Below, one piece after another: positions 3,623 through 34,539 of a stretch of DNA of 64,000 nucleotides. A model generated the notes under the pieces. That model worked only from the letters and a program-made list of their open reading frames with translations. It searched no databases and was not told where the DNA came from. Location of the stretch: assembly GCF_032854445.1 (NCBI RefSeq), contig NC_088300.1, forward strand, positions 59,556,984-59,620,983, read 5' to 3'. The position numbers and the translations under genes were made by a program. Source of the stretch: Liolophura sinensis (taxonomy: Eukaryota; Mollusca; Polyplacophora; Chitonida; Chitonidae). Each line of letters begins with the position of its first letter. Position 1 is the first letter of the stretch.

Positions 3623-3763
3623 TCAGAGCATGGACTCTTGCTCACGACTGATCTGCACCATGACAGCTTCCCGGGGCCGCGATACTGGCAGCCATTTTGG
3701 TGACAAATCTTGATTGTCCACGAGCTTCCATCTGAACTGCTGCAAAAACTGCTTCAGGATTGT
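3623..3763 (-). CDS. P450 exon 11 (C-terminus)
   Basis: Acceptor GATGTTGTAG. Encodes TILKQFLQQFRWKLVDNQDL and PVSRPREAVMVQIS, a standard P450 C-terminal strand, then REQESML and a stop. An internal donor (C|GTGAGC after 3646) could instead splice in phase to 3038-2932. Confidence 0.84.
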   Translation of the reverse strand, partial: TILKQFLQQFRWKLVDNQDLSPKWLPVSRPREAVMVQISREQESML

Positions 3764-6700
3764 CTACAACATCCAAACAAAAAGTCACACTCAATCTCGC
3801 TTTCAAATGTTTTATTCATTTAATTGAGGGTTAAACCTATACTCAAGAATACACTGGGGCCCCCCTGGCTCAGTTGGTTTCATACTCTAGTACAGCATAA
3901 TGACCCAGGATCCTCTTACTAATGCAGTCGCTGTGAGTTCAAATCCAGCTCATGCTGGCTTCCTCTCCAAGCAAACATGAGAAGGTCTGCCATCAACCTG
4001 CAGATGGTCATGGGTTTCCCCGGGCCCTGCCCGGTTTCCTCCCACCGCAATGTTTGCCGTCATTGTATAAAAGAAATATTCTTGAGTACAGCGTAAAACA
4101 CCAATCAAATAAATAAACAAATAAACCAAGTATGCCGCACTTTTGCAACAGGTTTTACTAAAGTATAAGGATGGAAAAAACTGGTCTTTTGCCAGGAAAG
4201 CTCTCACATATCTGACCGTAGGGTCAGTTGATATTTTCCATGATGACTCACCCATCCAATACATTGTTTCGGAATGAGTGGTTGTGAAAATAGTACAGCC
4301 TTAGTCCAACTTGTCAACCTTCTTCTAAGTGCTTTTTTTCGAACTCTTCTTTCTGAATACTTGCGACTGTAAAATACTACTTGAAACTTCACTTCAGTTT
4401 ATTTACTTATTTAAGTGTTGCTTAACGTCATACTTAGGTACTTTTCACCTTATATATGATGGCTGTCAGTGAGTGGTGGAGGAGGTGTAATACTGAGGCA
4501 GTTTCTTACAAGTGACATTTGCAGCTAATGGTCTTCAATGAAACTTAGGCTGTGCTAATGACCACACAACCAACGACAAGCAGTAAAAACTGAGAAATCT
4601 ACAAACTAATGTCCAAGGCCGGGTTTGAACCCACTCCTTGTGTGGCCTGACAATTGAAAGACAAGCACTTCTGACCACTAGACCATGTCTTGCTCCCCAA
4701 AACCTCAATTCAATGCTCTCCACATCCAAGTTCAAGACATTTCCAACCTAATTTTTCCACCATTGTCCAGATGAAAGCAACTTCAAATTTGATCTTGAGA
4801 CAAAACTACATGGCTTGAGATGGCCATATCAGGGCTAGAATAAACCTCCTGCTAACACAAGACAAGGTTGAAAAATTACAGTAACCAGGTGAAACACTTA
4901 TCTTTACCTTATACTATCATTGAATGAGTATTTCAGCCATATGAACTCTACTTCAGCTTCAACTTCAATTTGCTGAAATAGCCCCAGGAACAACCACCAT
5001 ATCAGTTAGAAATTTTCAAGTCAAATATCAGGTATCAGTTTCAGTGGTGGAGGAAACCACAGTTTCCCTATATGGAATAAAGTACTTGCCCCTAGAAAGT
5101 ATAAAAGATCATGTACATGTAGACGTCTCCACCCATGGAGTGTGCGGTCCTCGATGAAAATGCCAAACTGATGAAGGTGAGAGGGCTCCACCATGTATCA
5201 TGTCAGATATCCTAAATGAGTGTGTCTACTACAAACTGCCACCAAGGAACTGACATGGGAGGCATAGCTATGTTAACAATTGCCCGTCTGAGCTGAAGAC
5301 TGAACAAACAACTACATGTAGTATGTTCAGCAACTTTAAAAGGTATGTGGAGATTACCTTACCCCATGTCAATTTCTACAAACTGAATAATCCCATGGGC
5401 GTCAGAGTTTTGTTCTCAGTGTGACATTTGCTGGGATCATGCCCACTACTGAACTGCCAAACTTAAAGCTTGTAAAGCCTCAGTCACCAAAAGAGTTAGA
5501 AAAATTAAGTAAAGGAGATATCAACAAGCTAAACTTACATGCACTATAATGTTGACAAAGTTTTTCCCTATACATGCCCTTGGTCCAGCTCCAAAACAGA
5601 ACAGCTTTTCTTTGTCCTTGGCATTACTATGGAAAAAAGGTAATAAAAGTTACAGAACTAGTAGCACAATGACAGAGTAGGTAGGTAGAGCTTCCTTAAA
5701 CCACTTGATCTAAGAAGAATTCTTTAACTTTAACCATGTGATACTTACACAGTTCACTTTCGCAAAAGGATCTAATAAATAAAATACAAAATTTCAGGCT
5801 TGATGAGATACTGATACTATCTGTACAAAGGTCAATTGTCCATAATGTTTTAAAATACAGTTCAGGAATTTTAACACTTTCAAGCACCGTTTTGAAGAAC
5901 ATGAAACTTTCAAACACTATCCAAGTCGGAAAATTACATACCTATCATTTGAACTCAAGAGTATGCTGCAGTTTTTATAAGCACCTAACTAGCTTACCCA
6001 TTTGTCCACCTGCCCGGGTCAAACTTTTCGGGGTCTTTGAACACATCAGGGTCTCTGTGAGCAGAATGGGAGAGGTAGACTAAGGCTTGACCCTCTTCTA
6101 TATGATAACCACCTATAACACAGTCCTGCAATGTACAATGTTGGGTACAGGGATATGGTTCAGTGGTCAGTGGTCATGTCTACAACACTTATAATACAAG
6201 TGCTACGATAGCCAATTTAATTCTTCCAAAATTTTAGACAAAAGATATTTTCAGTGAAATTTGAAAACTGAACTGGTTAATACTGTCATTCTGAAAACAT
6301 CATCATCATTCAATTTAATCATTTTAAAGCACAATATGTCGTGTCCTAGCAATATTATAATACAAGTGGCCAAAATGACTGATATCTACAGAATTTAGAA
6401 CAACATTATCTTGAACAATATCAGTTATATTTTGGGACACAATTCCATTGATGGCTGACCAATTATTGTGGTCATATTTCGGATCATGGTTCCTGATCAT
6501 AAATTGCTAGCCTACCTTTCGAGCGACTCTCCGCCCACCTATAAATGGTGGATATAATCTTTCTACCTCGAGAAGGACAGACTCCATGAGAGCATTGTCG
6601 AACAATAAGTCATCCTGACAAAACACCTGCAAGTAAACAACACATCAGATTTATGACTTTGGCATTAGGGACAAGAGCTGAGGTAAACAACAACAGGTGG

Positions 6701-9700
6701 TTCTGCATGTAGGTGTGACAGTGTTACCTGATCATGTTGGCCTGTAGCTGTGATGAAGGAGGTGAGCAGTGAAGCTATGGCCTTAGGGACAAGAGCTGAG
6801 GTAAACAACAACAGGTGGTTCTGCATGTAGGTGTGACAGTGTTACCTGATCATGTTGGCCTGTAGTTGTGATGGAGGTGAGCAGTGAAGCTATGGTCTTA
6901 TGGACAAGAGCTGAGGTAAACAACAACAGGTGGTTCTGTATGTAGGTGTGACATTGTTACCTGATCATGTTGGCCTGTAGTTGTGATGGAGGCGAGCAGT
7001 GAAGCTATGGTCTTAGGGACAAGAGCTGAGGTAAACAACAACAGGTGATTCTGTATGTAGGTGTGACATTGTTACCTGATCATGTTGGCCTGTAGCTGTG
7101 ATGAAGGAGGTGAGCAGTGAAGCTATGGCCTTAGGGACAAGAGCTGAGGTAAACAACAACAGGTGGTTCTGCATGTAGGTGTGACAGTGTTACCTGATCA
7201 TGTTGGCCTGTAGCTGTGATGAAGGAGGTGAGCAGTGAAGCTATGGCCTTAGGGACAAGAGCTGAGGTAAACAACAACAGGTGGCTCTGTATGTAGGTGT
7301 GACAGTGTTACCTGATCATGTTGGCCTGTAGCTGTGATGAAGGAGGTGAGCAGTGAAGCTATGGTCTTAGGGACATGAACTGACGTTAACAACAACAGGT
7401 GGTTCTGTATGTAGGTGTGACAGTGTTACCTGATCATGTTGGCCTGTAGTTGTGATGAAGGAGGTGGGCAGTGAAGCTATGGTCTTAGGGACATGAACTG
7501 AGGTAAACAACAACAGGTGGTTCTGTATGTAGGTGTGACAGTGTTACCTGATCATGTTGGCCTGTAGTTGTGATGGAGGTGAGCAGTGAAGCTATGGTCT
7601 TAGGGACAAGAGCTGAGGTAAACAACAACAGGTGATTCTGTATGTAGGTGTGACAGTGTTACCTGATCATGTTGGCCTGTAGTTGTGATGGAGGAGGTGG
7701 GCAGTGAAGCTATGGCCTTAGGGACATGAACTGAGGTAAACAACAACAGGTGGTTCTCTATGTAGGTGTGACAGTGTTACCTGATCATGTTGGCCTGTAG
7801 CTGTGATGAAGGAGGTGGGCAGTGAAGCTATGGCCTTAGGGACATGAACTGAGGTAAACAACAACAGGTGGTTCTGTATGTAGGTGTGACAGTGTTACCT
7901 GATCATGTTGGCCTGTAGTTGTGATGGAGGTTTAGCAGTGAAGCTATGGCCTTAGGGACAAGAGCTGAGGTAAACAACAACAGGTGGTTCTGCATGTAGG
8001 TGTGACAGTGTTACCTGATCATGTTGGCCTGTAGCTGTGATGAAGGAGGTGAGCAGTGAAGCTATGGCCTTAGGGACAAGAGCTGAGGTAAACAACAACA
8101 GGTGGCTCTGTATGTAGGTGTGACAGTGTTACCTGATCATGTTGGCCTGTAGCTGTGATGAAGGAGGTGAGCAGTGAAGCTATGGTCTTAGGGACATGAA
8201 CTGAGGTAAACAACAACAGGTGGTTCTGTATGTAGGTGTGACAGTGTTACCTGATCATGTTGGCCTGTAGTTGTGATGGAGGAGGTGGGCAGTGAAGCTA
8301 TGGCCTTAGGGACATGAACTGAGGTAAACAACAACAGGTGGTTCTGTATGTAGGTGTGACAGTGTTACCTGATCATGTTGGCCTGTAGTTGTGATGGAGG
8401 TGAGCAGTGAAGCTATGGTCTTAGGGACAAGAGCTGAGGTAAACAACAACAGGTGATTCTGTATGTAGGTGTGACAGTGTTACCTGATCATGTTGGCCTG
8501 TAGTTGTGATGGAGGAGGTGGGCAGTGAAGCTATGGCCTTAGGGACATGAACTGAGGTAAACAACAACAGGTGGTTCTGTATGTAGGTGTGACAGTGTTA
8601 CCTGATCATGTTGGCCTGTAGCTGTGATGAAGGAGGTGGGCAGTGAAGCTATGGCCTTAGGGACATGAACTGAGGTAAACAACAACAGGTGGCTCTGTAT
8701 GTAGGTGTGACAGTGTTACCTGATCATGTTGGCCTGTAGTTGTGATGGAGGTGAGCAGTGAAGCTATGGTCTTAGGGGCAAGAGCTGAGGTAAACAACAA
8801 CACGTGGTTCTGTATGTAGGTGTGACAGTGTTACCTGATCATGTTGGCCTGTAGCTGTGATGAAGGAGGTGAGCAGTGAAGCTATGGCCTTAGGGACAAG
8901 GGCTGAGGTAAACAACAACAGGTGATTCTGTATATAGGAACTGTTAGGGAATGACAAGCCCTCCATCTTGTGAGTAAATCCAGACTTCTGCTGTAACTTC
9001 TCTTCTATCACTTTTAACAAAGAGGCCTGTCCAAAAAGAAAACAAACAAATCACATACTTTCATTGGACAAACAAACCTTCTTTAAAATCAATGATTTAC
9101 TCAGAGTGGCTAACCAGTGATAAATGTATTGCTCAACGTCAGCTCTATTAGCAATCATGTCTGAACATCTGGTCTGCACTGGACATATAGCTTTAGGTAT
9201 GACTAAGACATATTTTAAATTCACATGGCACAATTATGCGGAATGGAAATACACTGTACTATCATACTGAAAAACAACAGAAATATCTACCTTCTGAAGC
9301 ATGGCTAGAGTTTTTTGAAGCAACCACAAAAAGTTGCACATGTATAACAAAAATGAGCATGATGACGTAAGATTCAGGATTATCAGTAATTATCAGCACA
9401 TAGTTTACATTAAAAAAAATATATTTTAAAGAAATTAACATTAAGAGAAAAATAAGAGTAAAATCAATCTGAAGCCCAACAAAAACTTTGAAGAAGAGAT
9501 CTTTTTTGGAAGGTCAGTCTGGTTACCCTCTACAAACAAATTTTTAATACTGGCCTAAACATGGTAAGAAAATGGCCTGCACGTATGCATATACATTTAG
9601 TCTATCTCTACACAGGCCATACCTTTGCCTCCAAGGCCTTGCCAAAAGTTGAGGAGTTCCCCATAGGTAACTTAAGATTCAATGGCACTGACACTATCCC

Positions 9701-12700
9701 TAAAAACAAACAGAAAACAAAGTTTTGAGCATAAATTCACTCAGCTCATTGTTGTTTAAAGCCACAATCAAGAAATAGTAGCTGTCAGTTTTTTGGGTGG
9801 AGAAAATCGAAATTCTGGGGTAAACCACCAATCGTGAGTTACAGCCTATCATTACCAAGTGAGTACAGACATGTCTTGTTATGGCAGTATGTAGTGAGGT
9901 GGGTGGTTTATGCCGGGACTTTGTTTTTAAAAAGAAAAAATCAAAACGTAAATTGGAAGAGGCCTGGAAATAGACTTAAATGGCCACAGTAAGTTTGTTC
10001 TGACATGCTTCGTAACTCTGTAAATCACATTTTAACATGAAATTCTTACAAGGCCATGGGATACGCCATGTTAGAGAAACAGGAAATATGATGTTGTGTC
10101 ATTCAAACAACATGTCCATGTGCTGTAAATCTTCAACCTTTTCAACCACTACAGCACTTTTTTTTACAGTGGAATTTATGCATACATTTATTACGAAAAT
10201 CGTGCTAAAAATGATTTGTTTGAGACATTAAAGATGCAATCTTCAGAAAACTGTGCAAATTATTTCCCTGCACCCAATGGTTCTCTCAGAATGTTTCAAA
10301 ATGATGTGGTTGTACCCCTGAAACAGGCCAATACCACATACATTTTCTTCAGATTTGCCTTTCCTTTTAACATGTTTCTGTAATATGAAGATCTATCTCA
10401 CCATGCCAATGGGTTTTGGTCAGACTTGATATCTGAACTGCCAGGTCTTTAGAGTGTGCAAAGTCCAGGTCTAGAAACAAGCTTAGACAGATCTCTGTCG
10501 CAAGCTGCTTAAGTACTGAATACACACACAAGGGTTTGCTGAAAGTCAAGTATGAGAAAGATTAACAAAACCATCTTTTGAAAACCCTACAAGAAGGCAC
10601 ATTCAATTTAATACAAATGTCTAAATCTCTCTAATAAGCAGGAAAACTTGCATATACAATGACTCATTTGGCCAATGATTGAAACAGAATATTCAACACC
10701 TAGCTCACAGACATATAAAAATGTAACAATAACCAATAAGAGATTAAACATACATGTACAATGTATGCCCCCACCCTCTCCAATGTTTTGCCTAGACATC
10801 AGCAGTTGGGTTTACTGTAATTCTTCAACCTTTTCTGATGTTTGCAAGGTGTTTATTCAAGCAAATTCAGAAGGCATTATTCTGTGTAGACTGATACAAT
10901 TATACTTTTTGTGAAGCCCTGAAATTGGCCAATTTTTGTGAAGCTTTAAAACTGGCCAATTTTTATGAAGCCCTAAAACTGGCCAATTTTTTTTTGTAAA
11001 GCTCTGAAACTGGCCAATCCAACCAATGTAGTTTCAAGTTACAAATGTGCATAAATTGCACTGAAAATTTTTCTTTCATAATGATATGTGAAAAGGTTGA
11101 CGAAATAGGGCATGTGTGGTAGAAATAGACATACATGTACAAAGAAGGATTAATATATCAGACAGTACTCAACCTTTATACACATCAAAGCTAAGTTTCA
11201 GTTTGCCACCATATACCATATAATTTATCTTAAATAATGCTACATGTGTGTGTGATCAAACATGATATTAAACAATACAACAAGCCAATAATTTTCAAAC
11301 TAGCACAGAATATAGCAAATGTGAATATAACAACTAAATATGTGCAACAATATTGAGCTGAAAACTGCAGGGTTTGAAATTACCACTGACTTGTTGGAGA
11401 TGTCTGGCAAAAAAAAATTTATCTGCAGTTCGGACGAGTGTCCAGTTGAACATTTAGTGATGACAATTTGTACACATATGAAATTTAGCTACTTAGATCA
11501 GTTTCCCAAAACGGGGTTCAAGTGAATTCATAGTGACGCCTTTTAATCGTAAGAAAACCTCAAATTACTTCAAAACATGGCATCGTCGGAAAATCGTCTT
11601 TCCCTAAAATGTACCAGACCTCCTGTACAAGACTTTCCTTGTTACAAAAATAGATTACCCTGTTCTCATGGCTTATCACTGAGCAAAGAGATGCAAGGCG
11701 CATATCATGATAAAAAGTTCACGGGGACAGGAGTGTGACTCTAGGAATACGGTAGTCGTTGGCAGCGAAGCGAAAAATATTGATCGCTCAAGACGACCGG
11801 CCTACTTAAAAATTCAGATTAACCAAGCAATCGACAAACTGACCCAAGCAATGAAGCTAAACCAACAACAACAACATCAGCTAGGCGACGATATTTCAAG
11901 AAAGATTGGAAGCAATGTATTGCGCCACGTGTGAAAATTATGGTGATCGCAAATAAACCCCTGGTCAGTTATTAAAACAGTTATAAGTCAAACTAAATAC
12001 ACAGTACATTTAAAAATACATCGGCCAACAGCTCAGTGATGGGAGTTGCAAAAATGTCTGGTAACTTTAGGGATCAACAGGACAAATGTTCTGCTGGCTT
12101 TACTTTCCCTGAACTGATGTAGTTGTACATGTTAGACATAGTGTACGGCATTGCACAGTAAGAGCATACAAAACTTATCATACATTAGGTCTCATATCAC
12201 CAACAGGTGGTCCCTACAAAATTTTAAAAAATTGTCTGTTTTGTTCAAACACTGCTCATGATACACATAAAACAGTTTACCTGCCTCATAATAAAAGGTG
12301 ACAGATTCTTACCTGGTATCAATATCATTTAAGTATTTGGAGGTGATCCTGTGAATAGAAAAATATAATTTTTGAGCAACTAATGTATATGTATTTGAAC
12401 CACATGCTATGTGTACACATACTAATCAACATTTCATTTTAGATTGTTGTTCAATGCTACACTCATGGATCTTTCACTTATATAATGGCAGTCAGTTCTA
12501 GGGGTGCACTGGAGTTTAGAACTGGGAGTCCTCAGCTTCATCCACCCACCTCTGGGAAGTTATTGACAAACTTTCTCACATGTGACATACAGATATTCTC
12601 TTCAGAAATGAAATAATTTCAATCTCATGTTACAATCAATATGAAGGTTCAATAAATGTACTGCTATTTCTGATCTGACTCAGATGTTCAATGGCAAGAC

Positions 12701-15700
12701 AGAGAAGACTAAAAAGTTTGTGTCCAGCATGTTACTTCAGTGAGGCAGCACTGCAAACATGTTGGAGACAAGGGAGGTGCTGTCGGGATATGATGAAAAT
12801 GTCAAATCCCACATTAACAAACATCAATACCCGTAACCTATGATTACCACCCATTATACACCCACAACACTCACAGGGACATCCCCGTGTGGTATACTGT
12901 AGCTTCATATTCTGGAAGAACTACAATAAGAGAATTTTAGTTAATTCATACATTTACTTTAATAGAACAGTTACAGTTTGTAGAAAACAACCGTGATGGA
13001 CTTGAGAAAAACATCCACTTACGCATCAATTGTTTTCTGATAGTCCTCGATGGAGTGTGTTGTAAAGAGTTTGCACAGACACTTTCTCACTTCTATACTT
13101 TCTTCATCTGAATTTGATAATAATAATGGTTATCTGAAGAGAATGTGCCTGGAATGTACAAGAATTGTTCACACTCTGCAATGACCTAGTGTAGCCCTGT
13201 ATGTTGAAAGTTAAAATTAATGAGTCTCAGAAAGGATAACATCTAAAGCTTGACTTTTACTGTATGATGCATTTACTGTAAATCTTCAACATCTTATGGC
13301 ATGATATTACAGCAAAATTACTTAATTGGATTTTTGGCATTAAATCTCTGCATTCTGTTTTCGTAAACTGCTAATTAATAATAAAACTGATTAACATCTA
13401 ATCTAGTTTCTGTGAATTCTAAAATATTATGTAAATACACTCTTGTGGATATAACAAAACCATCTGAATAGGTAATTAATCTGGATTAATCTATCTTACC
13501 ATTCATAAACAGGATATTGTCTCCATAGATTTGATACATAAATGCTCTGTAACCCATCTCCAATGCACTGGAATCATCTGGAAGAAAATGTTACAAAGTT
13601 ACAAAGTGTTTTCAACATAGTTGCCTTGTAGAATGTTAATTACAAAATGTTAGTTACACAGTGGTTCATCACTACCTCTTAGCAATCAAAAAACTAGTTA
13701 GTCCTGCGTTAAGTAATACACTTTAATAATACTTTACACTGGCCAAATCAATAAAACTGATATATAACTGTTATATTCAAGAATTTTTTACTAATACGAT
13801 AGTGGTCAGTTTTATTTGTCGAGGAGACTAGAGTGCCCGAGGTAAACGACCAACCATTGCAAAGTTACTGCACAGATATACATACCATATACTGGTGGTA
13901 GATGTGGTCTTCTAGGAATGTTAGACTGTGCAAATGATCACACAAGCTTTATCTACTGCTTATTGTCGCAAAAGTCTTATAAGCAGTGAGAACAGGGCAA
14001 TCTACAAATTACCTGTCAACAGCCTGGTTTGAACCTGTACCTCATGTGTTCTAGCGATTGAAAGGCAAGCACCACAGCCACTCGGGCTTTGGCCAGTTCC
14101 ATCACGCTTGAGTCGCTCACACTCAGCGTTAGGCCTGTTCCACCAAGCTCAAGTCACTCAAACTCGGTGTTCGGCCTGTTCCAACAAGCTTGAGTCACTC
14201 ACACTCGGTGTTCAGCCTGTTCCAACAAGCTTGAGTCACCTACACTCGGTGTTTGGCTTGTTCCACCAAGCTTGAGTCACTCACACTCTGTCTTCGGCCT
14301 GTTCCACCAAGCTTGAGTCACTCACACTCAGTTTTTGGCCTGTTCCACCAAGCTTAAGTTACTCACATTCTGAGTTCGGCCTGTTCCACCAAGCTTGAGT
14401 CACTCACACTCGGTGTTCGGCCTGTTCCACCAAGCTCGAGTTACTCACACTCGGTGTTCGGCCTGTTCCACCAAGCTCGAGTCACTCAAACTAGGTGTTT
14501 GGCATGTTCCACCTAGCTCGAGTCGCTCACACTTGGTGTTCGGCCTGTTCCACCAAGCATAAGTCACTCACACTAGGTGATCAGCCTGTTCCACCAAGCT
14601 CGAATCACTCACGCGCGGTGTTCAGCTTGTACCACCACACTCGAGTCATTCACACTCAGTGTTCGGCCTGTTCCACCAAGCTCGAGTCACTCACACTCGG
14701 TGTTCGGCCTGTTCCGCCAAGTTCGAGTCACACACACTCGGTGTTCGGCCCGTTCCACCAAGCTTGAGTCACTCACACTAAGTGTTCGGCTTGTTCCACC
14801 AAGCTCAAGTCACTCGCAATGGTGATCCACTGATCCACCAAGTTCTGACAGGAGTGGGAGGTTACATCATTCAACAGATAGTTAGGGGTGAGCTAAATCT
14901 CACTGCAACTGCCTTGTGAACTGAGTCTCTATAGCTTTACCACAGTACTTTGGAACAGGTACATATGTAAGAATTGCAGCTGTTCCTCCAACTTACACTC
15001 GAGTCACTCACACTCGGTGTTCGGCCTGTTCCACCAAGCTCAAGCCACTCAAACTAGGTGTTTGGCATGTTCCACCTAGCTCGAGTCGCTCACACTTGGT
15101 GTTCGGCCTGTTCCACCAAGCATAAGTCACTCACACTAGGTGATCGGCCTGTTCCACCAAGCTCGAATCACTCACGCGCGGTGTTCAGCTTGTACCACCA
15201 CACTCGAGTCACTCACACTCAGTGTTCGGCCTGTTCCACCAAGCTCGAGTCACTCACACTCGGTGTTCGGCCTGTTCCACCAAGCTCGAGTCGCACACAC
15301 TCGGTGTTCGGCCTGTTCCACCAAGCTCGAGTCACTCACACTCGGTGTTCGGCCTGTTCCACCAAGCTCGAGTCACTCACACTCAGTGTTCGGCCTGCTC
15401 TACCAAGCTCGAGTCACTCACACTCGGTGTTCGGCCTGTTCCGCCAAGTTCGAGTCACACACACTCGGTGTTCGGCCCGTTCCACCAAGCTTGAGTCACT
15501 CACACTAAGTGTTCGGCTTGTTCCACCAAGCTCAAGTCACTCGCAATGGTGATCCACTGATCCACCAAGTTCTGACAGGAGTGGGAGGTTACATCATTCA
15601 ACAGATAGTTAGGGGTGAGCTAAATCTCACTGCAACTGCCTTGTGAACTGAGTCTCTATAGCTTTACCACAGTACTTTGGAACAGGTACATATGTAAGAA

Positions 15701-16006
15701 CTGCAGCTGTTCCTCCAACTTTAAAAAAAAAAAAAAAAGAATAGTGGCCATGCATCCACTCTCAAGATGAAGTCCTTAAGCATACATCAGACTAAGATCC
15801 ACAGGGACAGACTCACCATTTAACACATCCTGAACGCCTTTGTTGCTTCCCACAAATACTGTTGGCTTGTTAAGGAAACGTGCCTTGAATATGCGAGACT
15901 GGTGGTTGGAGAAATTTTGCTCAATAAAGCTGGTGGGGTCACGGTAGAAACTGTATGACTGGTCTCCGACGATGGGCCAGCCCACCTTACCCGGTACAGC
16001 ACTCAT
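3623..16006 (-). CDS. Cytochrome P450 (11-exon model, 416 aa)
   Basis: Haem-thiolate enzyme of the cytochrome P450 superfamily; substrate unknown. Model (descending): 16006-15817, 13577-13500, 13107-13023, 12348-12313, 10538-10402, 9699-9623, 9026-8835, 6614-6516, 6125-5998, 5626-5539, 3763-3623. Every junction is GT-AG and phases match throughout. Visible landmarks are the proline-rich start PGKVGWPIVGD, the K-helix ExxR (E281-R284, EVERLYPP), the PERF-like segment FDPGRW, and the haem loop FCFGAGPRACIGKNF with Cys359. The I-helix lacks the usual acid-Thr pair, and the J-helix region between I and K is missing or very short. No N-terminal membrane anchor is seen: MSAV has an in-frame stop 11 codons upstream, so either this is the true start or an anchor exon is missing. 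It lies head-to-head with UNG. Overall look is loosely CYP26-like; family not assigned. The gene call is firm, both ends less so. Confidence 0.88.
3853..4135 (+). mobile_element. tRNA-derived SINE, family A (plus)
   Basis: Starts CCTGGCTCAGTTGGTTT (box A-like), has B-box GAGTTCAAATCC near 3938, a central GGGTTTCCCCGGGCCCTGCC block, the tail ATATTCTTGAGTACAGCGTA and an A/T-rich end. The same body recurs at 18.1, 42.2, 58.8 and 61.3 kb. Confidence 0.85.
4395..4735 (-). mobile_element. tRNA-headed SINE, family B (minus)
   Basis: Read on the minus strand it begins with TGGTCTAGTGGTCAGAAGTG (box A) and has GGGTTCAAACCC (box B). The body is shared with copies at 13.8 and 54.5 kb. It lies in the last P450 intron. 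Confidence 0.75.
5539..5626 (-). CDS. P450 exon 10 (haem-binding loop)
   Basis: Acceptor TTTTCCATAG, donor CAT|GTAAGT. Encodes LFCFGAGPRACIGKNFVNII, a full match to FxxGxxxCxG with the axial cysteine at residue 359. Confidence 0.92.
5998..6125 (-). CDS. P450 exon 9
   Basis: Acceptor ACATTGCAG, donor GG|GTAAGC, phase 0 in and 2 out. Encodes YHIEEGQALVYLSHSAHRDP and DPEKFDPGRW, the PERF-type segment before the haem loop. Confidence 0.88.
6516..6614 (-). CDS. P450 exon 8 (K-helix)
   Basis: 33 codons, phase 0 in and out, acceptor GTTTTGTCAG, donor AAG|GTAGGC. Encodes LLFDNALMESVLLEVERLYP followed by PFIGGRRVARK. E-V-E-R is the ExxR motif. Confidence 0.88.
6655..8940 (-). repeat. Exon-derived tandem array in P450 intron 7
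   Basis: Nineteen copies (including the parent exon end) of a ~115-118-bp unit that, on the minus strand, is the last ~93 nt of the I-helix exon, its 5' splice site CAG|GTAACACTG and ~20 nt of intron. All 19 keep the splice donor. Each internal copy also has a CATACAG-like AG at its upstream edge, so most look like 90- or 93-nt exons open in frame. Copies differ by point changes and mainly 3-nt length steps; one copy near 7930 has a 1-nt frameshift. Confidence 0.95.
8835..9026 (-). CDS. P450 exon 7 (I-helix; parent of the tandem array)
   Basis: 64 codons, phase 0, acceptor TTTTTGGACAG, donor CAG|GTAACA. Encodes ASLLKVIEEKLQQK and the I-helix LLLFTSALVPKAIASLLTSF. The 3' ~93 nt plus the donor form the outermost copy of the 6.65-8.94 kb array. 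No (A/G)Gx(D/E)T motif is present in the helix. Confidence 0.86.
9623..9699 (-). CDS. P450 exon 6
   Basis: Encodes VSVPLNLKLPMGNSSTFGKA, the F-G region (PLNL...FGKAL), ending phase 0 at AAG|GTATGG. Three in-frame acceptors spaced 6 nt apart could be used (exon start 9699, 9693 or 9687); the first has the best pyrimidine tract. Confidence 0.84.
9745..9850. mobile_element. Family B SINE fragment
   Basis: Contains TGTCAGTTTTTTGGGTGGAG and GGGGTAAACCACC, matching the body of the copy at 54.5 kb. Degenerate, both ends missing. Confidence 0.45.
10402..10538 (-). CDS. P450 exon 5
   Basis: Acceptor TTGACTTTCAG, donor G|GTGAGA, phase 2 in and 1 out. Encodes VLKQLATEICLSLFLDLDF and the following SLTKTHWHG, fitting D/E helices. 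Confidence 0.84.
10800..11115. repeat. Dispersed repeat, copy 1, with internal 26-bp tandem
   Basis: Shares ordered blocks with 55830-56070: AAGGTGTTTATTCAAGCA, GCATTATTCTGTGT and GCATAAATTGCACTGAAA. Inside is a four-fold tandem of GAAGCCCTGAAACTGGCCAA (10910-11020), present only once in copy 2. Type unknown, perhaps a non-autonomous DNA element. Confidence 0.65.
12313..12348 (-). CDS. P450 exon 4 (36 nt)
   Basis: Very short exon between ATTCACAG and AG|GTAAGA. Phase 2 in and out; encodes ITSKYLNDIDT. It joins the C-helix exon to the D/E-helix exon in frame, which is the main support. Confidence 0.72.
12440..12615 (-). mobile_element. Family B SINE fragment
   Basis: Degenerate body sharing TATAATGGCAGTCAGTT, a CTGGGAAGTTATTGACAAACT-type segment and CTCACATGTGACATACA with other family B copies. 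In P450 intron 4. Confidence 0.55.
13023..13107 (-). CDS. P450 exon 3
   Basis: Acceptor AAATTCAG, donor GC|GTAAGT, phase 1 in and 2 out. Encodes DEESIEVRKCLCKLFTTHSI and then EDYQKTID, fitting the C-helix region. Confidence 0.8.
13500..13577 (-). CDS. P450 exon 2
   Basis: Acceptor TTCTTCCAG, donor G|GTAAGA, phase 1 in and out. Encodes DDSSALEMGYRAFMYQIYGD, the B to B' region. Confidence 0.82.
13775..14095 (-). mobile_element. Family B SINE (minus)
   Basis: Body with ATACGATAGTGGTCAGTTTT and GAGGTAAACGACCAACC. The tRNA-like head on the minus strand includes GAGTGGCTGTGGTGCTTG and GGTTCAAACCAGGC. The 41-bp array starts directly beside it. Confidence 0.7.
14096..15547. repeat. 41-bp tandem array, two blocks
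   Basis: Unit of 41 bp with core CTCGAGTCACTCACACTCGG followed by TGTTCGGCCTGTTCCACCAAG. Block 1 is 14096-14820 and block 2 is 14994-15547, separated by a unique spacer that recurs after block 2. Since 41 is not a multiple of 3, long open frames arise by chance in all three plus frames. In P450 intron 1. Confidence 0.95.
14821..14993. repeat. 173-bp spacer, copy 1
   Basis: Unique sequence starting GGTGATCCACTGATCC and ending GTTCCTCCAACT. It differs from copy 2 (15548-15720) at only one base that I can see. Confidence 0.93.
15548..15720. repeat. 173-bp spacer, copy 2
   Basis: Second copy of the spacer, followed by a run of 16 A at 15723-15738. Together with block 2 it marks a recent tandem duplication. 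Confidence 0.93.
15817..16006 (-). CDS. P450 exon 1
   Basis: 63 codons plus one base, from MSAVPGKVGWPIVGD to QDVLN, donor G|GTGAGT. Contains the Pro-Gly hinge, the A-helix and the first beta strands (KPTVFVGS). The ATG has a purine at -3. The start is provisional because an upstream anchor exon could splice in through a nearby AG. Confidence 0.8.
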
Positions 16007-19166: not shown

Positions 19167-22100
19167 GTGAGCTTTTAGGTGGACTGAGAAGTTCTTTGTT
19201 TTCTTGTTGTGGACTGGCTTTCCCGGGCTGCCTGTGGTATTAGTAAACGCTTGATCATGATCAAACGCCTAACCAAATAAGTCGTTGTCCTCGCATGGCT
19301 ATCTAGGCCTTAAGCCAAGCGAAGGCTGAATCATCGGGGCGGTGAGGTCACAGTATTTGTCACTGAAGCTCTGACTTCATCAAAGCTAAAGCCAGGTATA
19401 GCGCATGAAAAATAAATTTGTCTCAGTCAGCCAGTTCTGAGTTGTAGCATGAGCACTGGTATTTTATTACTGATTCTAAGAGGTACGGCGTGTGCAGATT
19501 GGTGTTGTGGGTATTGCAATGTCTGCACTAAAGGTTAGCCTAATTGTTGTAATCATCAACGTAATCTTCTTTTCAGAACACAACACCAAAGAAACTCAAA
19601 GCAACCGATGACAAGGCTGATCAAGGTAACGTGAGTCTGTCTCCGGAACAGAAACAGAGGATTGAGGAAAACCGCCGAAAAGCTTTGGAGAAACTTTCGT
19701 CCAAGTCCAGTGATGGATTGCAGAGTCTTGTCGGACCAACCTGGTATAAGGCATTGGCCCCTGAATTCAGTAAACCATACTTTATACAAGTAAGTGCGCT
19801 CAAAAAGTGTGCACCAAATGCAGGGGTTCATAGAAGTAATTTTTCCAAGAACCAGCTACCATTTTCTGAGCGAAATTGAGTTTCTGTTTCAAGAATAAGG
19901 AATCAAGACAGAATGGTCCTGCATTAATGGCTTATGGACTATGCGGTTGTCACTCTTAGTTTGTAAAAGGGCAAGTCAAAAGTAATCTAAAACAAAAAGT
20001 AAACCATTTTGAGAAAATGAAGTCTTGCAATGCCTTATGTGTGTACTACAAATGAATCAGAATAGTGCATCCAGATGAATGTTCTGTGCATTCTCTTGAA
20101 ATAGTATCCTTACTTTTCAAAATAAACGGAAAGCAGTTCAAAATGAAGTTTGATTTGACCTATTGACAGGCCACGATCACATGAAATTTACTGTGAAAAT
20201 CAGCCATCGATAATGACATAATAAAGAAATCCACAAATAGTGACTTACACCATGGAATATTAACTATAATTATCTTTAGACAGAGAGTCTACATATTTAG
20301 AGATAAAATACATTGCTACTTTATGCTACAATGAATTGTCACTTTTTCCACAACAAGTACAGCTTGATCTCAATGGCTTGAACTGAAGTCCTGTCTGGTA
20401 CACATGTAAGTCTTTGAACAAAAACATGCTTTTACAGTGAATCAATGTCACTGGTAAATGTTCATATCTGGCAAAGAAGATTTTGGTTTTGTTGCTATAA
20501 GCCATTCATCAAACTTCAGACTCCCAAAAACAAAATCTGCAGGCAAACTGCGTGCTTGCCTTGAAAGAAGCTGAAGATGTTAGCGCCTCCTGACTTGAAG
20601 GGGAGGAAACTAGTCAGACTCGTGTTAGGCTAATGTCAGAAACAGAATGATCGGAAGCCGAAGTAGGTCAAATTATTGAGACCAAAGGAGCTTACTATGT
20701 CTCGTGTTTGATCTGATCAAAGGGAGGTCATGAAGATTTCCGTAAAAGGGAGATAACTCGTCACGCCTTCGCAGACTTTTAATATGTTGAAATTGAATTC
20801 ATGTAAAATTTTGCATATGCTTTTCTACAAACAACCTCAAATTGAATAAATATAACCGTTGTTGAGTTTTTTATTCAATTGACGGACCGAATTCCCACTT
20901 GTCCAGACGACTTCTATGAACTCCTGCAAATAATAGTTTTGTCTCCTGATATTCTTAGCACATTTTCACAAACTTAAACATTTCAAGGAACAAAAGGATC
21001 ATGAACCGCAAATTAAAAATACATGTATCTATGAGTATGAACAATGAAAGATGTTAGACAGCCGGAGTTTGAACGAAAAATTTGTTATTTTGTCAGGTAT
21101 TTTAACGAAAAGAAAGGAAAATCAGCATCATAAGTAACTTGACATGGTCTTTAAAAATACAACAGCATGAAACAGTAAGACATGAAAAAAATAAGTTTGA
21201 TTTTTGCCTATCTTTTCAGTTGTCACAGTTTGTAGCTGCTGAGAGGGAAAAGGTTACTGTGTATCCTCCAGCTGATGAGGTGTTTACCTGGACAAACACC
21301 TGTCCTATCAACCAGGTGAAAATATCGCTGGCAACACTTAAGTAATCTGAACATGATATGCCATCTAGATTTCATGAACTCTCAATCTTTGTAAGGCTTG
21401 AAATTGATTTATTGAATTTAAAAAGCGTGGTACTCCTGGGTAAAACTAAAGTGTTCCTATCAAGTAATTTTAAAGCCTAAAGGAACTTTAGTACTGTTTT
21501 GTATGTAAAAGTATCGATGACTTTGTACGTTCACAATTCCCGTTGCCAATTCGAGAAAGGGTAGCCTGAAGGAAGTCTTGTAATAAAAAGAAATTTAGAC
21601 TAATTAGAGTTTCTGGGACAGATAGTTACGCGATTCTACACTGACAGCACTTTTCCTGAAAATTATTTACCAGCAGAACTTGTTTTCCATTATATACTGA
21701 TTGTCTGGATCAAGCCTTGTACTAAATATATATTTTACATTTCATTGAAGGTCAAAGTTGTTATACTTGGACAAGATCCTTATCATGGTGTGAGACAAGC
21801 TCATGGTAAGCATAACTTGCCCACAATATTCAGTTTTGCTGGGTAATGGAGATTTCTGAGAAAAGCACAATTGTAGCATCCTGATGATATTTCTGATTTT
21901 CAAAACACACAGCATTGCATTATATAGCTTTTGCTGGGATTTTATTCAGCTTTGCTAGAAGATATATATTAACGATTTGACTACTATGAACTTTCAGTTC
22001 CATGAATTAAAGGGCAATGTACAACTGAATGTTCAAACATAATATTGAAACAGAAATAATATTTGATCATAATCTCTTTATTTTTTTCAGGCTTATGTTT

Positions 22101-23805: not shown

Positions 23806-25240
23806 TCCACAGAAGTGCTTACCTTCCACTGAGGGACTAGTTTGAATGAGGGAAGGGCTATATATTCTAGGTTCAGATTTATAACTAGGGGTAATTTTTT
23901 ATAAGCAGAAATCAGTTACATGTATATTTCAATAATTATGCTTTTTTGTGATTATATCAACACTTCAGAAATACTTTGGTGCAATTGTAAGAAAACTATT
24001 TTAATTGTGGTACCCATAAGAAGTGCATTCATATGCATGTGGTACATTTCTGGGATTAAGATACCATGTTCGTGGTAAGTCATGACAAGGTGTTGGTTGA
24101 CTTTGTGAGTGTGGAAAAGAAATATCAGATACTGCCATATTAATGTGTTCATGTGTGATGTATTAGGTGGTAGTGTTTTGATACATATATCTTCAATGTT
24201 ACTATTGTAAGGTCTTTAGTACATGTTCTAACATGGTGCAAGTGCTTTGTCGTAGTTTGAAATACTAGATTAGTGTTTGCTTCATTTTGAATGATTGCCA
24301 ATGTTTCTTTGATATACCCGTGAGATGTAGCAGTTGCCAAACATCAGTAATTTAAAGGCAGAGCTGTCGATCAATAGAAATGAACAGAAAAACTGTTTTG
24401 ATTGTTTGAATGATTTGATCCATATTTGAAATTTATTAGAAAAACGTTATCAGCATGTGACTGAAAAAATTTGTCAGTACGACATAAAAACTTAGGCAAA
24501 CATTAAGCATCACTACCGAAACAGGCAATAATATGTAATGATTCATGCTCATTCACATCACCCTTCAACATCAGTATGTGTGCACTTTCATTGTCCTATC
24601 ATCTCTGTGTTCATGGGAAAATGGTACTATTTTCCCTCATCTTGTGCAGCTACACATAGGGATCATTGAAGATTCTGATAACCTCTGTTCTTGACAAAGA
24701 CAAGCGATTGTGGTGTAAAGATTGGAATTTTTACACCTACAAAGTGTTTGCACATGAACTTGCAACAACGAATAGTTAACCAATAGGTGATTTTCACCAG
24801 AAAGTCGGTCATGTCAGCTAATTTCACTGCATGTTGCTTACGTGGCACGTCATCACATTGCTTGTTTAATATTGATTTCATTGGCCATTTCTAACTGACT
24901 GATTGTTTACTTGTATGTGCATTTCACTTCATCATTCATCATCACAAGGTGTTCACCTTATCGAAGAGTGTGAAAGATTCTCACTGTGTTGATAAAAAGA
25001 ACATACACCTCATTCCATCAATTTTACCCGCATAATCTCGTGTGATGTTTTATTTTGCATTTCCAATCTTATCCTAATTTCATATGAATTATCACTCGTC
25101 CAGTGTCTGTTTCTATCATATTTATCATCCGCTCGCTTTATTTTAATCATTCCTCACATCCAAATATTTTAATGAATCAAAACATGCATCCAGTGTATTT
25201 CAATCGTGCTTCACATTTAAGCAGTTATATCTGGTAGCCA
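23806..25240. other. UNG 3' flank
   Basis: AT-rich sequence after the UNG stop. No recognisable gene; the AATCAT-rich repeat block begins gradually near 25.2 kb. Confidence 0.6.
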
Positions 25241-25289
25241 ACCCTCAGTTCAATCATCTCTCCCATCTTATCAGTCCTGTCAACCATCT

Positions 25290-28200
25290 ATACTTCATTC
25301 AATCATGTCTCACATTTCACCAGTCATGTTGACCATCCATCTCTCATTCAATCAGGTCTCCCATTTCACCAATCATGTCAACCTTCCATCCCTCATTCAA
25401 TCAGGTCTCCCATTTCACCAATCATGTCAACCTTCCATCCCTCATTCAATCAGGTCTCCCATTTCACCAATCATGTCAACCTTCCATCTCTCATTCAATC
25501 ATGTCTCCCATTTCACCAATCATGTCAACCTTCCATCCCTCATTCAATCAGGCCTCCTATTTCACCAATCATGTCAACCTTCCATCCCTCATTCAATCAT
25601 GTCTCCCATTTCACCAATCATGTCAACCTTCCATCCCTCATTCAATCAGGTCTCCCATTTCACCAATCATGTCAACCTTCCATCTCTCATTCAATCATGT
25701 CTCCCATTTCACCAATCATGTCAACCTTCCCTCCCTCATTCAATCAGGCCTCCTATTTCACCAATCATGTCAACCTTCCATCCCTCATTCAATCATGTCT
25801 CCCATTTCACCAATCATGTCAACCTTCCATCCCTCATTCAATCATGTCTCCCATTTCACCAATCATGTCAACCTTCCCTCCCTCATTCAATCATGTCTCC
25901 CATTTCACCAATCATGTCAACCTTCCATCCTTCATTCAGTCAGGTCTCCCATTTCACCAATCATGTCAACCTTCCATCCTTCATTCAGTCAGGTCTCCCA
26001 TTTCACCAATCATGTCAACCTTCCATCCCTCATTCGGTCAGGTCTCCTATTTCACCAATTACGTCCACCACCCATCGGTTATTTGTTCATGTCTCCCATT
26101 TCACCTATCATGTCAACTATCCATCCCTCATTCAGTCTGGTCTCCTATTTCACCTATCTTGATCACCATCAGCCCCTCATTCAATCAGGTCCGTATGTCA
26201 CCAGTCATGATCACCATCAGTCCTTATTCAATCAGGTCTCCCATTTCACCAATCATAATCACCATCAGTCCCTCATTCAATCAGGTCCCTATTTCACTAG
26301 TCGTGATCACCATCAGGTCTCCCATTTCTCCAATCATGATCACCATCATTCAGTCAGGTCTCCCATTTCACCAATCATGATCACCATCAGTCCCTCATTC
26401 AATCAGGTCTCCCATTTCACCAGTCGTGATCGCCATCAGTCCCTCATTCAATCAGGTCCCTATGTCAACCATGCATTTCTCATTCAATCATGTCTCCCAT
26501 TTCACCAATCATGTCAACCTTCCCTCCCTTATTCAATCATGTCTCCCATTTCACCAATCATGTCAACCTTCCCTCCCTTATTCAATCATGTCTCCAATTT
26601 CACCAATCATGTCAACCTTCCCCTCCCTCATTCAATCATGTCTCCCATTTCACCAATCATGTCAACCTTCCATCCCTCATTCAATCAGGTCTCCTATTTC
26701 ACCAATCATGTGAACCATCCATTTCTCATTCAATCATGTCTCCCATTTCACCAATCATGTCAACCTTCCCTCCCTTATTCAATCATGTCTCCAATTTCAC
26801 CAATCATGTCAACCTTCCCCTCCCTCATTCAATCATGTCTCCCATTTCACCAATCATGTCAACCTTCCATCCCTCATTCAGTCAGGTCTCCCATTTCACC
26901 AATCATGTCAACCTTCCATCCTTCATTCGGTCAGGTCTCCCATTTAACCAATCATGTCAACCTTCCATCCCTCATTCGGTCAGGTCTCCTATTTCACCAA
27001 TTACGTCCACCACCCATCGGTTATTTGTTCATGTCTCCCATTTCACCTATCATGTCAACTATCCATCCCTCATTCAGTCTGGTCTCCTATTTCACCTATC
27101 TTGATCACCATCAGCCCCTCATTCAATCAGGTCCGTATGTCACCAGTCATGATCACCATCAGTCCTTATTCAATCAGGTCTCCCATTTCACCAATCATGA
27201 TCACCATCAGTCCCTCATTCAATCAGGTCCCTATTTCACCAGTCGTGATCACCATCAGTCCCTCATTCAATCAGGTCTCCCATTTCACCAATCATGATCA
27301 CCATCATTCAATCATGTCTCCCATTTCACCAATCATGTCAACCTTCCATCCCTCATTCTGTCAGGTCTCCTATTTCACCAATTACGTCCACCACCCATCG
27401 GTTATTTGTTCATGTCTTCCATTTCACCTATCATGTCAACTATCCATCCCTCATTCAGTCTGGTCTCCTATTTCACCTATCTTGATCACCATCAGCCCCT
27501 CATTCAATCAGGTCCGTATGTCACCAGTCATGATCACCATCAGTCCTTATTCAATCAGGTCTCCCATTTCACCAATCATGATCACCATCAGTCCCTCATT
27601 CAATCAGGTCCCTATTTCACCAGTCGTGATCACCATCAGTCCCTCATTCAATCAGGTCTCCCATTTCACCAATCGTGATCACCATCATTCAGTCAGGTCT
27701 CCCATTTCACCAATCATGATCACCATCAGTCCCTCATTCAATCAGGTCCCTATTTCACCATTCGTGATCACCATCAGTCCCTCATTCAATCAGGTCCCTA
27801 TTTCACCAGTCGTGATCACCATCAGTCCCTCATTCAATCAGGTCTCCCATTTCACCAATCATGATCACCATCATTCAGTCAGGTTTCCCATTTCACCAAT
27901 CATGATCACCATCAGTTCCTCATGCAATCAGGTCTCCCATTTCACCAATCATGATCACCATCATTCAATCAGGTCTCCCATTTCTCCAATCATGATCACC
28001 ATCATTCAGTCAGGTCTCCCATTTCACCAATCATGATCACCATCAGTTCCTCATTCAATCAGGTCTCCCATTTCACCAATCACGATCACCATCATTCAAT
28101 CAGGTCTCTCATTTCACTAGTCATGTCAACCATCCAGGTCTCCCATTTCAGCGATCATGGTCACCATCATTTAATCATGTCTCTCATTTCACTAGTCATG

Positions 28201-28470
28201 ACAACCATCCATCTCTCATTCAGTCAGATCTCCCATTTCAGCGATCATGATCACCATCATTCGATCAGGCCTCCCATTTCACCAATCATGATCACCATCA
28301 GTCACTTATTCAATCAGGTCTCCCATTTCACCAATCATGATCACCATCAGTCCCTCATCAGTGAATGTCTCCAATTTTACTTGTCATGATTACCATCAAT
28401 CCCTCATTCAATCAGGTCTCCCATTTCACCAATCATGTCCACCATCAGTCCCTCAGGTGAATAATGTCTC
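25290..28470. repeat. 49-bp satellite
   Basis: Unit of 49 bp (core TCTCCCATTTCACCAATCAT, then GTCAACCTTCCATCCCTC) in ~60 copies. After ~26.1 kb the motif shifts to a GATCACCATCAGTCCCTC variant in larger mixed blocks. The plus strand is C-rich and G-poor (about 19 C and 3 G per unit). Because 49 = 1 mod 3 and no frame has a stop, the three frames each read the same repeat peptide, giving a 640-codon open frame at 25375-27297 that I do not regard as a gene. Confidence 0.95.
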
Positions 28471-28894
28471 CCATTTAGACAGTGAAGTCAGGATTGTATC
28501 CCTCCATTTAATCGTGTCCAGGTCTTTCAATTGAAAATTTGACTCCTTTTATCTGTGATGTTAGCCATACATCCCTCCATTTAAGAACGCTTCTCATTTC
28601 ACAAATCATGGCAACCATCCATCCCTCATTCAGCCAGGTCTCCCATTTCACCAGTAATGTTGATCATCCATTATTTGGTTTAAAAATGTCTCCCATTTAG
28701 ATAATCCTGTCATCATTTTTCAGTTTAAACATTTCTTTCATTTTACTGGTGATGTTACCCATACATCCCTCCACATCACTCCATTTAATAATGCTTCTCA
28801 TTTAACCAATCATGTCAACTATCCATCCCCCATTTAATCATGTCTCCTCCCATTTCACTAATAATGTTGACCATCCATCCTCTGGTTTAATAAT

Positions 28895-28980
28895 GTTGCT
28901 TAACCCAGGAGGCTGTCACCAATGTGGTCGTTTTGAGTTCAAGTCTAGCTCATGTTGGCTTTCTCTCAGGGTGTACATGA
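28895..28980 (+). mobile_element. SINE head fragment in satellite
   Basis: Contains GAGTTCAAGTCTAGCTCATG, like the family A box B region at 3938. Homologous pieces are at 29620-29695 and 31982-32060. Confidence 0.6.
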
Positions 28981-29619
28981 GGAGCATTCAGCTCACCCAT
29001 CCATCCCTCATTTAATCTTTTCTCCCATTTCACCAGTCATGTCAACCATCCATCCCTCATTTGTTCATGTCTCCCGTTTCATCAGTGATGTCGACCATCC
29101 ATCCCTCATTTGATCATGTCTCTCATTTCATCTGTGATCTTGACCAGCCATCCCTCGGTTTAATAATGTTTCCTATTTAGATAATCAAACCATTCTGTCT
29201 CGCATGTAATCATGTCAACAACTTTCAGTTTTAAAGTCATGTCTCCCATTTCTTCAATCCTGTGAACCATCCATCCCCCATTTAATCAGGTCTCCCACTC
29301 CATCAAACATCTTTACCATCCATCCCCCATTTAATCATGTCTCTCATTTCACCAATCATATCAACATTCCATCCCTCATTCAATCAGGTCTCCCAATTCA
29401 CCAATCTTGTCAACATTTTATGCCCCGTTTTACCAGTGATGTTACCCATACATTCTTCTATTTATTAATGCCTCTCATTCAACCAATCATGTCAGACAGC
29501 CATCCCTCCCTCAATCATGTCTCCCATTTTATCCATCATGTCAACCATCCCTCCCCCATTTAATCATGTCTCTCATTTTACCAATCATGTCCACATTCCA
29601 ACCCTCAGTTTAATAGTGT

Positions 29620-29695
29620 CACCTAACCGAGGAGTCTGTCACCAATGCGGTCGCTGTAAGTTCAGCTCATGTTGGCTGCCTCTCGGGGTGTACTC
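29620..29695 (+). mobile_element. SINE head fragment in satellite
   Basis: AATGCGGTCGCTGTAAGTTC then AGCTCATGTTGGCTGCCTCT; box B is damaged. Part of duplicated segment copy 1. Confidence 0.6.
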
Positions 29696-31337
29696 CACCT
29701 TGTCACCCATTCATCCCTCATTTGATCTTGTCTCCCATTTCACCAATCATGTCAACCATCCCTCCCTCATTTGATCATGTCTCTCGTTTCATCAATGATG
29801 TTTAAGTCCATTCCTCATTTAATCATGTCAGTCACCCATCGTTGAATTTAATATCATCAATTGTATCAATCATGATACAATCGACCATCCATCCCTCATT
29901 TAGCCATTTCTCCTTATTCACCAATCCCGTCAACCATCCATCCCTCATTTAATCAGGTCTCCCATTTTATGAATCATGTCAGCCATCCATCCCTCATTTA
30001 ATCAGGTCTCTTAATCCTGTGAACCATCCATTCTTCATTCAATCACATCTCCCATTTCACCAGTCACATCAACCATCCATCCCTCAGTGTAAGAATGTCT
30101 CTTATCACACTAATCGTGTCAACCACCCATGTATCCCTCATTTAACCAGGTCTCTGATGTTATCAATCATGTCGCATGTGCATCCCTCCATTTAGTCCTG
30201 TCTCTCATGTTGATGTCATGTTGATTATTCATCTTACATTTTAGTCATGCCCAATCCTGTCCACTACCATCCCTCAAGCTAATCTTACATCCCATTTAAC
30301 CAATGAGGTCAACCATGTCCCTTTTTTTTAGCAATATCTCTTGTTTTACCAATCATGTCAACCATCTAAAACTAAGCCAGTTGTGCCTCCCATTTGACCC
30401 ATTCTTTCAACATTGATTCAGTTATAAATCCTTCACCAAACACCTTTCATTTATTCTTCTGTGGTATGTGAGTTTAAATCATCTGCTCTCTTGTTTCTCC
30501 TGTCCAAACATCTCAGCAAAGTATCCTTCATCCCCCTCATTTCAATCATGTATCCTTCATCCCTCATTTCAATCATGTATCCTTCATCCCTCATTTCAAT
30601 AATGTGTCTTCCATCCCCTCATTTCAATCATGTATCCTTCATCCCCTCATTTCAATCATGTGTCTTTCATCCCCTGATTTCAGTCGTCTTTTATCCCCTT
30701 GAATCAGTCGTGCATCCTTCATTTTAATCCCTAGTGAAATGCCCTTTTCTTCCCCATTATTTGAATTTTGTATCCTTTCCAATCCCTCCATTCAGTCCTT
30801 TTGACATCCTCTTATTTCAATCATGTTCTTTATGGCTTCCAACCCTTCATTTCAATAATGTACCTCCAGTGTCTCAATTCAGCCAGATTTTGGTTTTTTT
30901 GACATCTTCACATTTCAATTCTGTATCTTTTCCAGTTACTCATTACAATCAAGTGTCTATCCATCCCACCATTAATATTGTATTAGCATGATGTATTGGC
31001 GTTACAATGCGGCTGAGGTGCACTGAAGTTGTAATCATTCACTTCATTTTGTTTACCTTCCATCCGTTGATGTGAACCCTGTATCCTCTCCATGTCTAAT
31101 TTTAGTTGTATCCCATGTAACCCTCACTCAGTTTTTTTTTTATCTTTTTCATCCCCTCCTTCCCATCCTTCCCACCATTTATCATCTCATACTCCTTTTA
31201 AATCATGTATTCTGATTCATTCGTTTCAATCATGTACGCCTTCTTACCCTTCATTCAAATCAGGTATATCATCCAATCCCTCAGTTTGATCATGTTTCTC
31301 ATCCAGTCCCTTAATTCAGTCATGTATTGCCTCCAGT

Positions 31338-34535: not shown

Positions 34536-34539
34536 CTCT

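What the first reader, a model, noticed from the sequence alone, without database searches (positions are those of the whole stretch)
6655..8940. A P450 I-helix exon and its splice donor multiplied into a 19-copy tandem array
The array in P450 intron 7 is not random satellite. Each ~117-bp unit is, on the minus strand, the last ~93 nt of the coding I-helix exon plus its donor CAG|GTAACACTG. All 19 copies keep the donor. Seventeen of the 18 extra copies keep the reading frame, with length changes in steps of 3 nt (90/93 nt). Each also has an AG at its 5' edge (CCTACATACAG) that could act as acceptor. Any number of copies could therefore be spliced in, each adding 30-31 residues in phase between residues 265 and 266, or the donors could compete with the true one. 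An intronic bank of near-identical, phase-neutral exons is unusual.
Basis: partly seen in the sequence, partly recalled or inferred. Interest (0 to 1): 0.85.

Follow-up and report, generated by a model that had tools for sequence, protein, structure and literature searches.

The report
Exon-edge minisatellite in chiton P450 intron
In a chiton gene for a cytochrome P450 enzyme, the end of one exon together with its splice signal has been copied 18 more times into the next intron; it looks like a neutral repeat array of a kind described from lancelets, but nearly the whole intron is made of it, so it may show how a new intron is born.

Summary
The array is real. On the minus strand, exon 7 of a hand-built, intact 11-exon P450 gene model is followed by 18 full copies and one partial copy of a 118-bp unit (12 of 118, 5 of 115, 1 of 116 bp): the last 104 nt of exon 7 plus the first 14 nt of intron 7. 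All 19 donors are kept; 17 of 18 copies keep frame. Changes among copies look neutral (14 nonsynonymous, 2 synonymous, 1 intronic), so kept frames and donors fit recent copying. The genome matches the published chiton Liolophura assembly. A second donor-spanning array lies in another of its P450 genes (1 of 28 loci); there 8 of 41 copies found have lost the donor GT. The anatomy is that of lancelet 'mirages', minisatellites that span an exon/intron boundary and are reported not to disturb splicing. Best reading: a mirage, removed with the intron. Most novel reading not excluded: intron 7 was itself born from it, since the two closest P450 relatives held have no intron there, the protein is about 20 residues short exactly there, and about 98% of the intron is array. 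No RNA was available.

The parts
8835..9026 (-). Exon 7 of the P450 gene (192 nt, phase 0 at both ends, ends at residue 265); its last 104 nt (8835-8938) are the source of the unit
6627..8834 (-). Intron 7, 2208 nt, about 98% covered by the array
6728..8834 (-). 18 extra full copies, counted donor to donor (12 x 118, 5 x 115, 1 x 116 bp), each ending in CAG|GTAACA
6657..6727 (-). Last, partial copy, degenerate at its 3' end
7899..8014 (-). Copy 8, the only frame-shifted copy (116 bp)
7899..8719 (-). Seven-unit block (copies 2-8), near-identical to copies 9-15 (812 identical, 8 mismatches, 4 gaps)
7076..7898 (-). Second copy of the seven-unit block (copies 9-15)
6516..6626 (-). Exon 8 (111 nt), K helix with ExxR; its acceptor TTTACTTGCAG scores best of the AG sites listed for exon 7 and intron 7
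3623..16006 (-). Whole P450 gene, modelled by hand without RNA: 11 exons, 420 residues, uninterrupted frame, all 10 introns GT..AG; matches Pfam p450 (1.3e-40) and CYP120 (2ve3, 2e-31)

Best explanation
It is a 'mirage': a minisatellite seeded by a tandem duplication across the exon 7/intron 7 donor (104 nt of exon plus 14 nt of intron) and then grown and homogenised by unequal exchange or slippage, including a seven-unit block duplication. Because the copied segment contains the donor, every extra copy falls inside the intron, so the first donor (8835|8834) spliced to the acceptor at 6627|6626 still makes the normal protein and the copies are free to drift. Shown: anatomy, origin of the unit, neutral-looking changes, block duplication, a second such array in the same genome. 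Inferred: that splicing uses only the first donor, and the mechanism of growth.
For: Unit boundaries and 19 donors. No match outside the array. Changes among copies: 14 nonsynonymous, 2 synonymous, 1 intronic, no stop made by a substitution; per-change N/S ratio 1.24 with the two fixed differences included; no hit in the 9-nt donor has P 0.19. The two fixed exon-versus-array differences are both synonymous (Fisher P 0.039 against 14N:2S within the array). Blocks 2-8 and 9-15 nearly identical. A second array, in L014, unit 48 nt of exon plus 9 nt of intron; of 41 later unit junctions found by a word pattern 33 keep GT and 8 have lost it. Tandem repeats cover 25% of the window. Lancelet mirages have the same anatomy and turnover.
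Against: No RNA was seen, so normal splicing is assumed. All 19 donors here are intact, which use of the donors would also predict (P 0.19 only). The number of mutational events is small, they were listed by hand with one event per column, and 6 of 25 variable columns (copy 8's disturbed stretch and two columns of the 3-nt gap) were left out.
Confidence: 0.82

Rival explanations
1. Intron birth (a history, compatible with the best explanation): intron 7 did not exist before. A tandem duplication inside a longer ancestral exon (I helix to K helix) created donor-containing copies, and the repeats became an intron, at the price of about 20 residues around helix J.
For: The two closest relatives found in the genome (L021, L023) have I to K helix in one exon that starts where exon 7 starts. 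From the end of helix I to ExxR this P450 has 24 residues against 43 and 46, and the CYP120 alignment opens gaps there. About 98% of the intron is array. The acceptor region shares TGTTGTTTAC with the unit.
Against: L021 and L023 look like sisters (43% and 35% identical to each other in two segments; 32% and 26% to this gene), so one loss in their ancestor is as parsimonious as one gain here. Some other P450 matches in the genome end or begin at profile positions 312-316, so an old intron nearby is possible. The acceptor likeness is weak: 4 of 100 and 4 of 158 acceptor-like sites and 1.3-1.4% of random 48-mers do as well.
Confidence: 0.3
2. Phase-neutral exon bank: units are spliced in, each adding 30-31 residues after residue 265.
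For: 17 of 18 copies in frame, all donors intact, an AG before each pseudo-exon.
Against: Named acceptors are weak, spacers 25 nt, no constraint on amino acids, changes such as Leu to Pro and Leu to His inside the helix segment. A second I-helix segment between helices I and K would probably spoil the P450 fold (inference).
Confidence: 0.05
3. Decoy-donor brake: some transcripts use later donors or a unit's internal acceptor, gain a premature stop and are degraded, so copy number tunes the enzyme's level.
For: All 19 donors have the same nine bases (7.6 bits, within the 4.4-11.3 of the gene's 10 donors); any later donor brings a stop at codon 85 of exon 7 in 18 of 18 cases; internal acceptor of 8.2-8.6 bits in 19 of 20 places.
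Against: No RNA. The second array of this genome has lost GT in 8 of 41 junctions found. Mirages in lancelets are reported not to disturb splicing.
Confidence: 0.13

Closest known systems
Lancelet 'mirages' (Adh3, globins BflGb6 and BflGb9, troponin C, PGBD5)
   Same: [quoted passage not shown] PMC3902484: one passage read; the original Adh report was not seen)
   Different: A mollusc, not a lancelet; 18 extra full copies against 6 and 3 in the two BflGb6 haplotypes; nearly fills its intron; haplotype variation and RT-PCR not seen here
Intron gain by tandem genomic duplication (potato RdRp, PMC4974935; Rogers model)
   Same: Tandem duplication of a segment can turn repeats into intron
   Different: Here many copies, and no proof that the intron was absent before (title and start of abstract seen in a search listing only; Rogers as cited in PMC3087553)
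Human internal tandem repeats at exon-intron boundaries (PMC2812944)
   Same: Minisatellite expansion at exon edges, novel introns formed
   Different: Units there average 30 bp repeated 4 times, with RNA support (abstract and passages seen)
Tandem exon duplications and mutually exclusive exons (PMC9013439)
   Same: Repeated exon sequence within one intron
   Different: Whole exons with their own acceptor and donor (recalled); here the acceptor was not copied (only abstract and outline of the paper seen)

Membership tests
Mirage (boundary-spanning minisatellite) | Tandem units span an exon/intron boundary | tested here: met
   104 nt of exon 7 plus 14 nt of intron 7 in the unit, with small deletions in 6 of 18 copies
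Mirage (boundary-spanning minisatellite) | Minisatellite turnover: homogenised interior, divergent edges | tested here: met
   Seven-unit block duplication; two fixed differences between exon and array; degenerate last copy
Mirage (boundary-spanning minisatellite) | Length differs between haplotypes | not testable with these tools
   One assembled copy held; 20 matches all in one place
Mirage (boundary-spanning minisatellite) | Regular splicing of the host gene is kept | not testable with these tools
   No RNA; the hand-made gene model is intact if the first donor is used
Tandem exon duplication / mutually exclusive exons | Each copy has its own acceptor and donor with a spliceable intron between | tested here: not met
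   Acceptor of exon 7 not copied; 25-nt spacers; named AG 4.6-4.9 bits in 17 of 18 copies
Tandem exon duplication / mutually exclusive exons | Coding constraint on the copies | tested here: not met
   14 nonsynonymous to 2 synonymous among copies, no deficit of nonsynonymous changes; few events
Intron gained by tandem duplication | Intron absent at that position in relatives | tested here: inconclusive
   Absent in 2 of 2 closest relatives found in the genome, but these may be sisters
Intron gained by tandem duplication | Intron sequence derives from the flanking exon | tested here: met
   About 98% of intron 7 lies in the array, 104 of 118 nt of the unit from exon 7
Cytochrome P450 | Heme-binding FxxGxRxCxG and ExxR | tested here: met
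   FGAGPRACIG and EVER in the model; Pfam 1.3e-40; motif names recalled
Cytochrome P450 | I-helix AGx(D/E)T | tested here: not met
   The aligned segment of exon 7 has no such motif where CYP120 has AGHET; motif recalled; the family filing rests on the profile match

The most novel reading that the evidence does not exclude
Intron 7 is a young intron caught soon after birth: a boundary-spanning minisatellite grew inside a single ancestral exon, its first copy supplies the donor, the array is the intron, and about 20 residues around helix J were lost in the process; several such events may be under way in this chiton genome.
Probability: 0.28. Interest if true: 0.78.

Novelty: new member of a known kind. 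Interest (0 to 1): 0.5.

Why it matters
In the rows that eight paper searches listed (some searches listed only part of what matched) I saw minisatellites spanning exon/intron boundaries described for lancelets and, in a related form, for human segmental duplications, and none for molluscs. Two cases in one chiton suggest the process is wider. If intron 7 proves to be new, its parts are still readable, which would make the tandem-duplication model of intron gain directly testable in a living animal with public RNA data. It also warns that intact frames and donors in tandem copies need not mean function.

Tried and rejected
Dispersed copies of the unit: no match outside the array. Homology of the intron 7 acceptor to the unit: a shared 10-mer, scoring above the gene's nine other acceptors (20 against at most 17), but 4 of 100 and 4 of 158 acceptor-like sites do as well, so not used as proof. 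Genome-wide count of regularly spaced AGGTAAG triplets: 3619 matches against 1917 for the reversed word; matches overlap and large arrays dominate the part listed, so only suggestive. Arrays near exons in L015, near the second exon of L014 and in L008 lie in introns and do not span the exon. L026 has a 31-bp array of 3.2 copies over the stop codon at the end of a P450 frame, not over a splice site. Self-matches in L001, L003 and L023 were not followed; those in L002 join two P450 exons 89% alike. A helix-J exon hidden in intron 7 was considered; the array leaves no room for it. Structure prediction was not run.

Full report
What is there. The window holds a P450 gene on the minus strand. A model made by hand, without RNA, has 11 exons between 16006 and 3623, an uninterrupted frame of 420 residues and GT..AG at all 10 introns. 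It matches Pfam p450 at 1.3e-40 and, among solved structures, CYP120 best (2ve3, 2e-31). Heme and ExxR motifs are present; the usual I-helix acid-threonine pair is not (motif names recalled).

The array. Tandem Repeats Finder reports 6660-8938, period 118. Cutting at the donors gives the real exon 7 end plus 18 full copies, 12 of 118, 5 of 115 and 1 of 116 bp, and a partial copy to about 6657. All 19 donors read CAG|GTAACA. Seventeen of 18 extra copies keep frame; copy 8 does not. A whole-genome search with the unit gave 20 matches, all in this array (the tool states its limits for common words).

Where the unit begins. The homology between exon 7 and the copies runs upstream to CCTATATACAG in the exon (CCTACATACAG in 14 of 18 copies). 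That is coding sequence. The true acceptor of exon 7 lies outside the unit.

Is it kept by selection? Taking one event per variable column, 19 substitutions separate exon and copies: 14 nonsynonymous, 4 synonymous, 1 intronic. Two of the synonymous ones are fixed differences between exon and array, so 14:2:1 remain among copies. Random placement expects 11.0 nonsynonymous, 4.9 synonymous, 2.3 intronic and 0.6 stops; no stop has P about 0.55, no hit in the donor P 0.19, and the longest unchanged run (26 nt) P 0.13. Fixed 0N:2S against 14N:2S within gives Fisher P 0.039, and the share of nonsynonymous changes within the array does not differ from the neutral share (P 0.27). This is the direction expected if the exon is constrained and the copies are not; the numbers are small. 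The list was made by hand; 6 of its 25 variable columns (67 and 69-71, copy 8; 73-74, the 3-nt gap) were left out.

Could it be spliced? Use of the inner AG would break the frame. The copied donor scores 7.6, within the 4.4-11.3 of the gene's donors. Pseudo-exons are 25 nt apart; the gene's introns are 371-2239 nt. Extending exon 7 to any of the 18 later donors meets a stop at codon 85 (18 of 18). Single non-adjacent units could in principle be spliced in; nothing here shows it or rules it out.

How it grew. Copies 2-8 and 9-15 align with 812 identical, 8 mismatched and 4 gapped positions over about 820 bp, a block duplication of recent date. This fits minisatellite turnover.

The organism. 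The genome has eight molluscan haemocyanin domain matches in a row on one contig. Its 632 contigs and about 609 Mb match the Liolophura assembly (published as L. japonica, corrected to L. sinensis; PMC11068029 passages, PMC12441733 whole text). Seven of the 10 contig lengths returned equal scaffold lengths in the paper's table; three differ by 3-6 kb.

A second case. I took 28 P450 loci, picked by hand from the matches, and tested 39 exons for copies of themselves nearby (29, 10). One, in L014, has a 57-bp array that spans its donor: 48 nt of exon plus 9 nt of intron. A word pattern found 41 later unit junctions, of which 33 keep GT and 8 read ATAA; junctions changed in other ways would be missed. 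Donor loss is thus tolerated there. A 330-nt piece with part of that exon is also copied into the array at 99.4%. In L026 a 31-bp array spans a stop codon rather than a splice site. Tandem repeats cover 25% of the window and 13.8% of the first 20 loci and 6.3% of the other eight.

What it is. 'Mirages' in lancelet genes are minisatellite-like duplications of exon/intron boundaries, many with splice signals, unstable in length and reported not to disturb regular splicing (PMC3087553 section 16; PMC3902484 passage). The original Adh report was not seen. The present array meets the structural features; splicing and length variation could not be tested. I file it as a new member of that kind, in a mollusc.

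Intron birth. The two closest relatives found in the genome, L021 and L023, carry the I to K helix region in one exon that begins where exon 7 begins. From the end of helix I to ExxR they have 43 and 46 residues, this gene 24, and CYP120 also aligns with gaps here. About 98% of intron 7 is array. This fits an intron made from the array, as the lancelet authors proposed for globins. Against it: L021 and L023 may be sisters, so loss is as parsimonious; some other P450 matches in the genome end or begin nearby; the likeness of the acceptor to the unit is weak. I put it at about 0.3.

Literature limits. Eight paper searches on the phenomenon listed no report of mirages in molluscs; three of them listed only part of what matched, most listed papers were not opened, and subscription papers are mostly not held. 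A ninth search was for the genome paper.

Noticed in passing
L014 6481-9125 (G000 C10:19670480-19673124), minus strand: Second exon-end array in another P450 gene: 57-bp unit, 48 nt exon plus 9 nt intron; 8 of 41 junctions found have lost GT; a 330-nt piece with part of the exon also copied at 99.4%.
   Followed up: yes
L026 5103-5203, plus strand: 31-bp unit, about 3.2 copies, spanning the stop codon at the end of a P450 frame, so that the stop is repeated in what follows.
   Followed up: partly
window 14079-15542: 41-bp minisatellite in intron 1 of the same P450 gene, with what looks like a larger block repeated within it.
   Followed up: no
window 25238-40717: Long run of related minisatellites (49, 28, 35, 60-bp units and others) over some 15 kb.
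   Followed up: no
window 6627-6642: Intron 7 acceptor region shares the 10-mer TGTTGTTTAC with the unit; borderline by control.
   Followed up: partly
window 8835-9026: The I helix lacks the usual acid-threonine pair, and the protein is about 20 residues short before the K helix; it may not be an ordinary monooxygenase.
   Followed up: partly
window 21604-21846, plus strand: Open frame with [11 protein letters not shown], which recalls uracil-DNA glycosylase (recalled, not searched).
   Followed up: no
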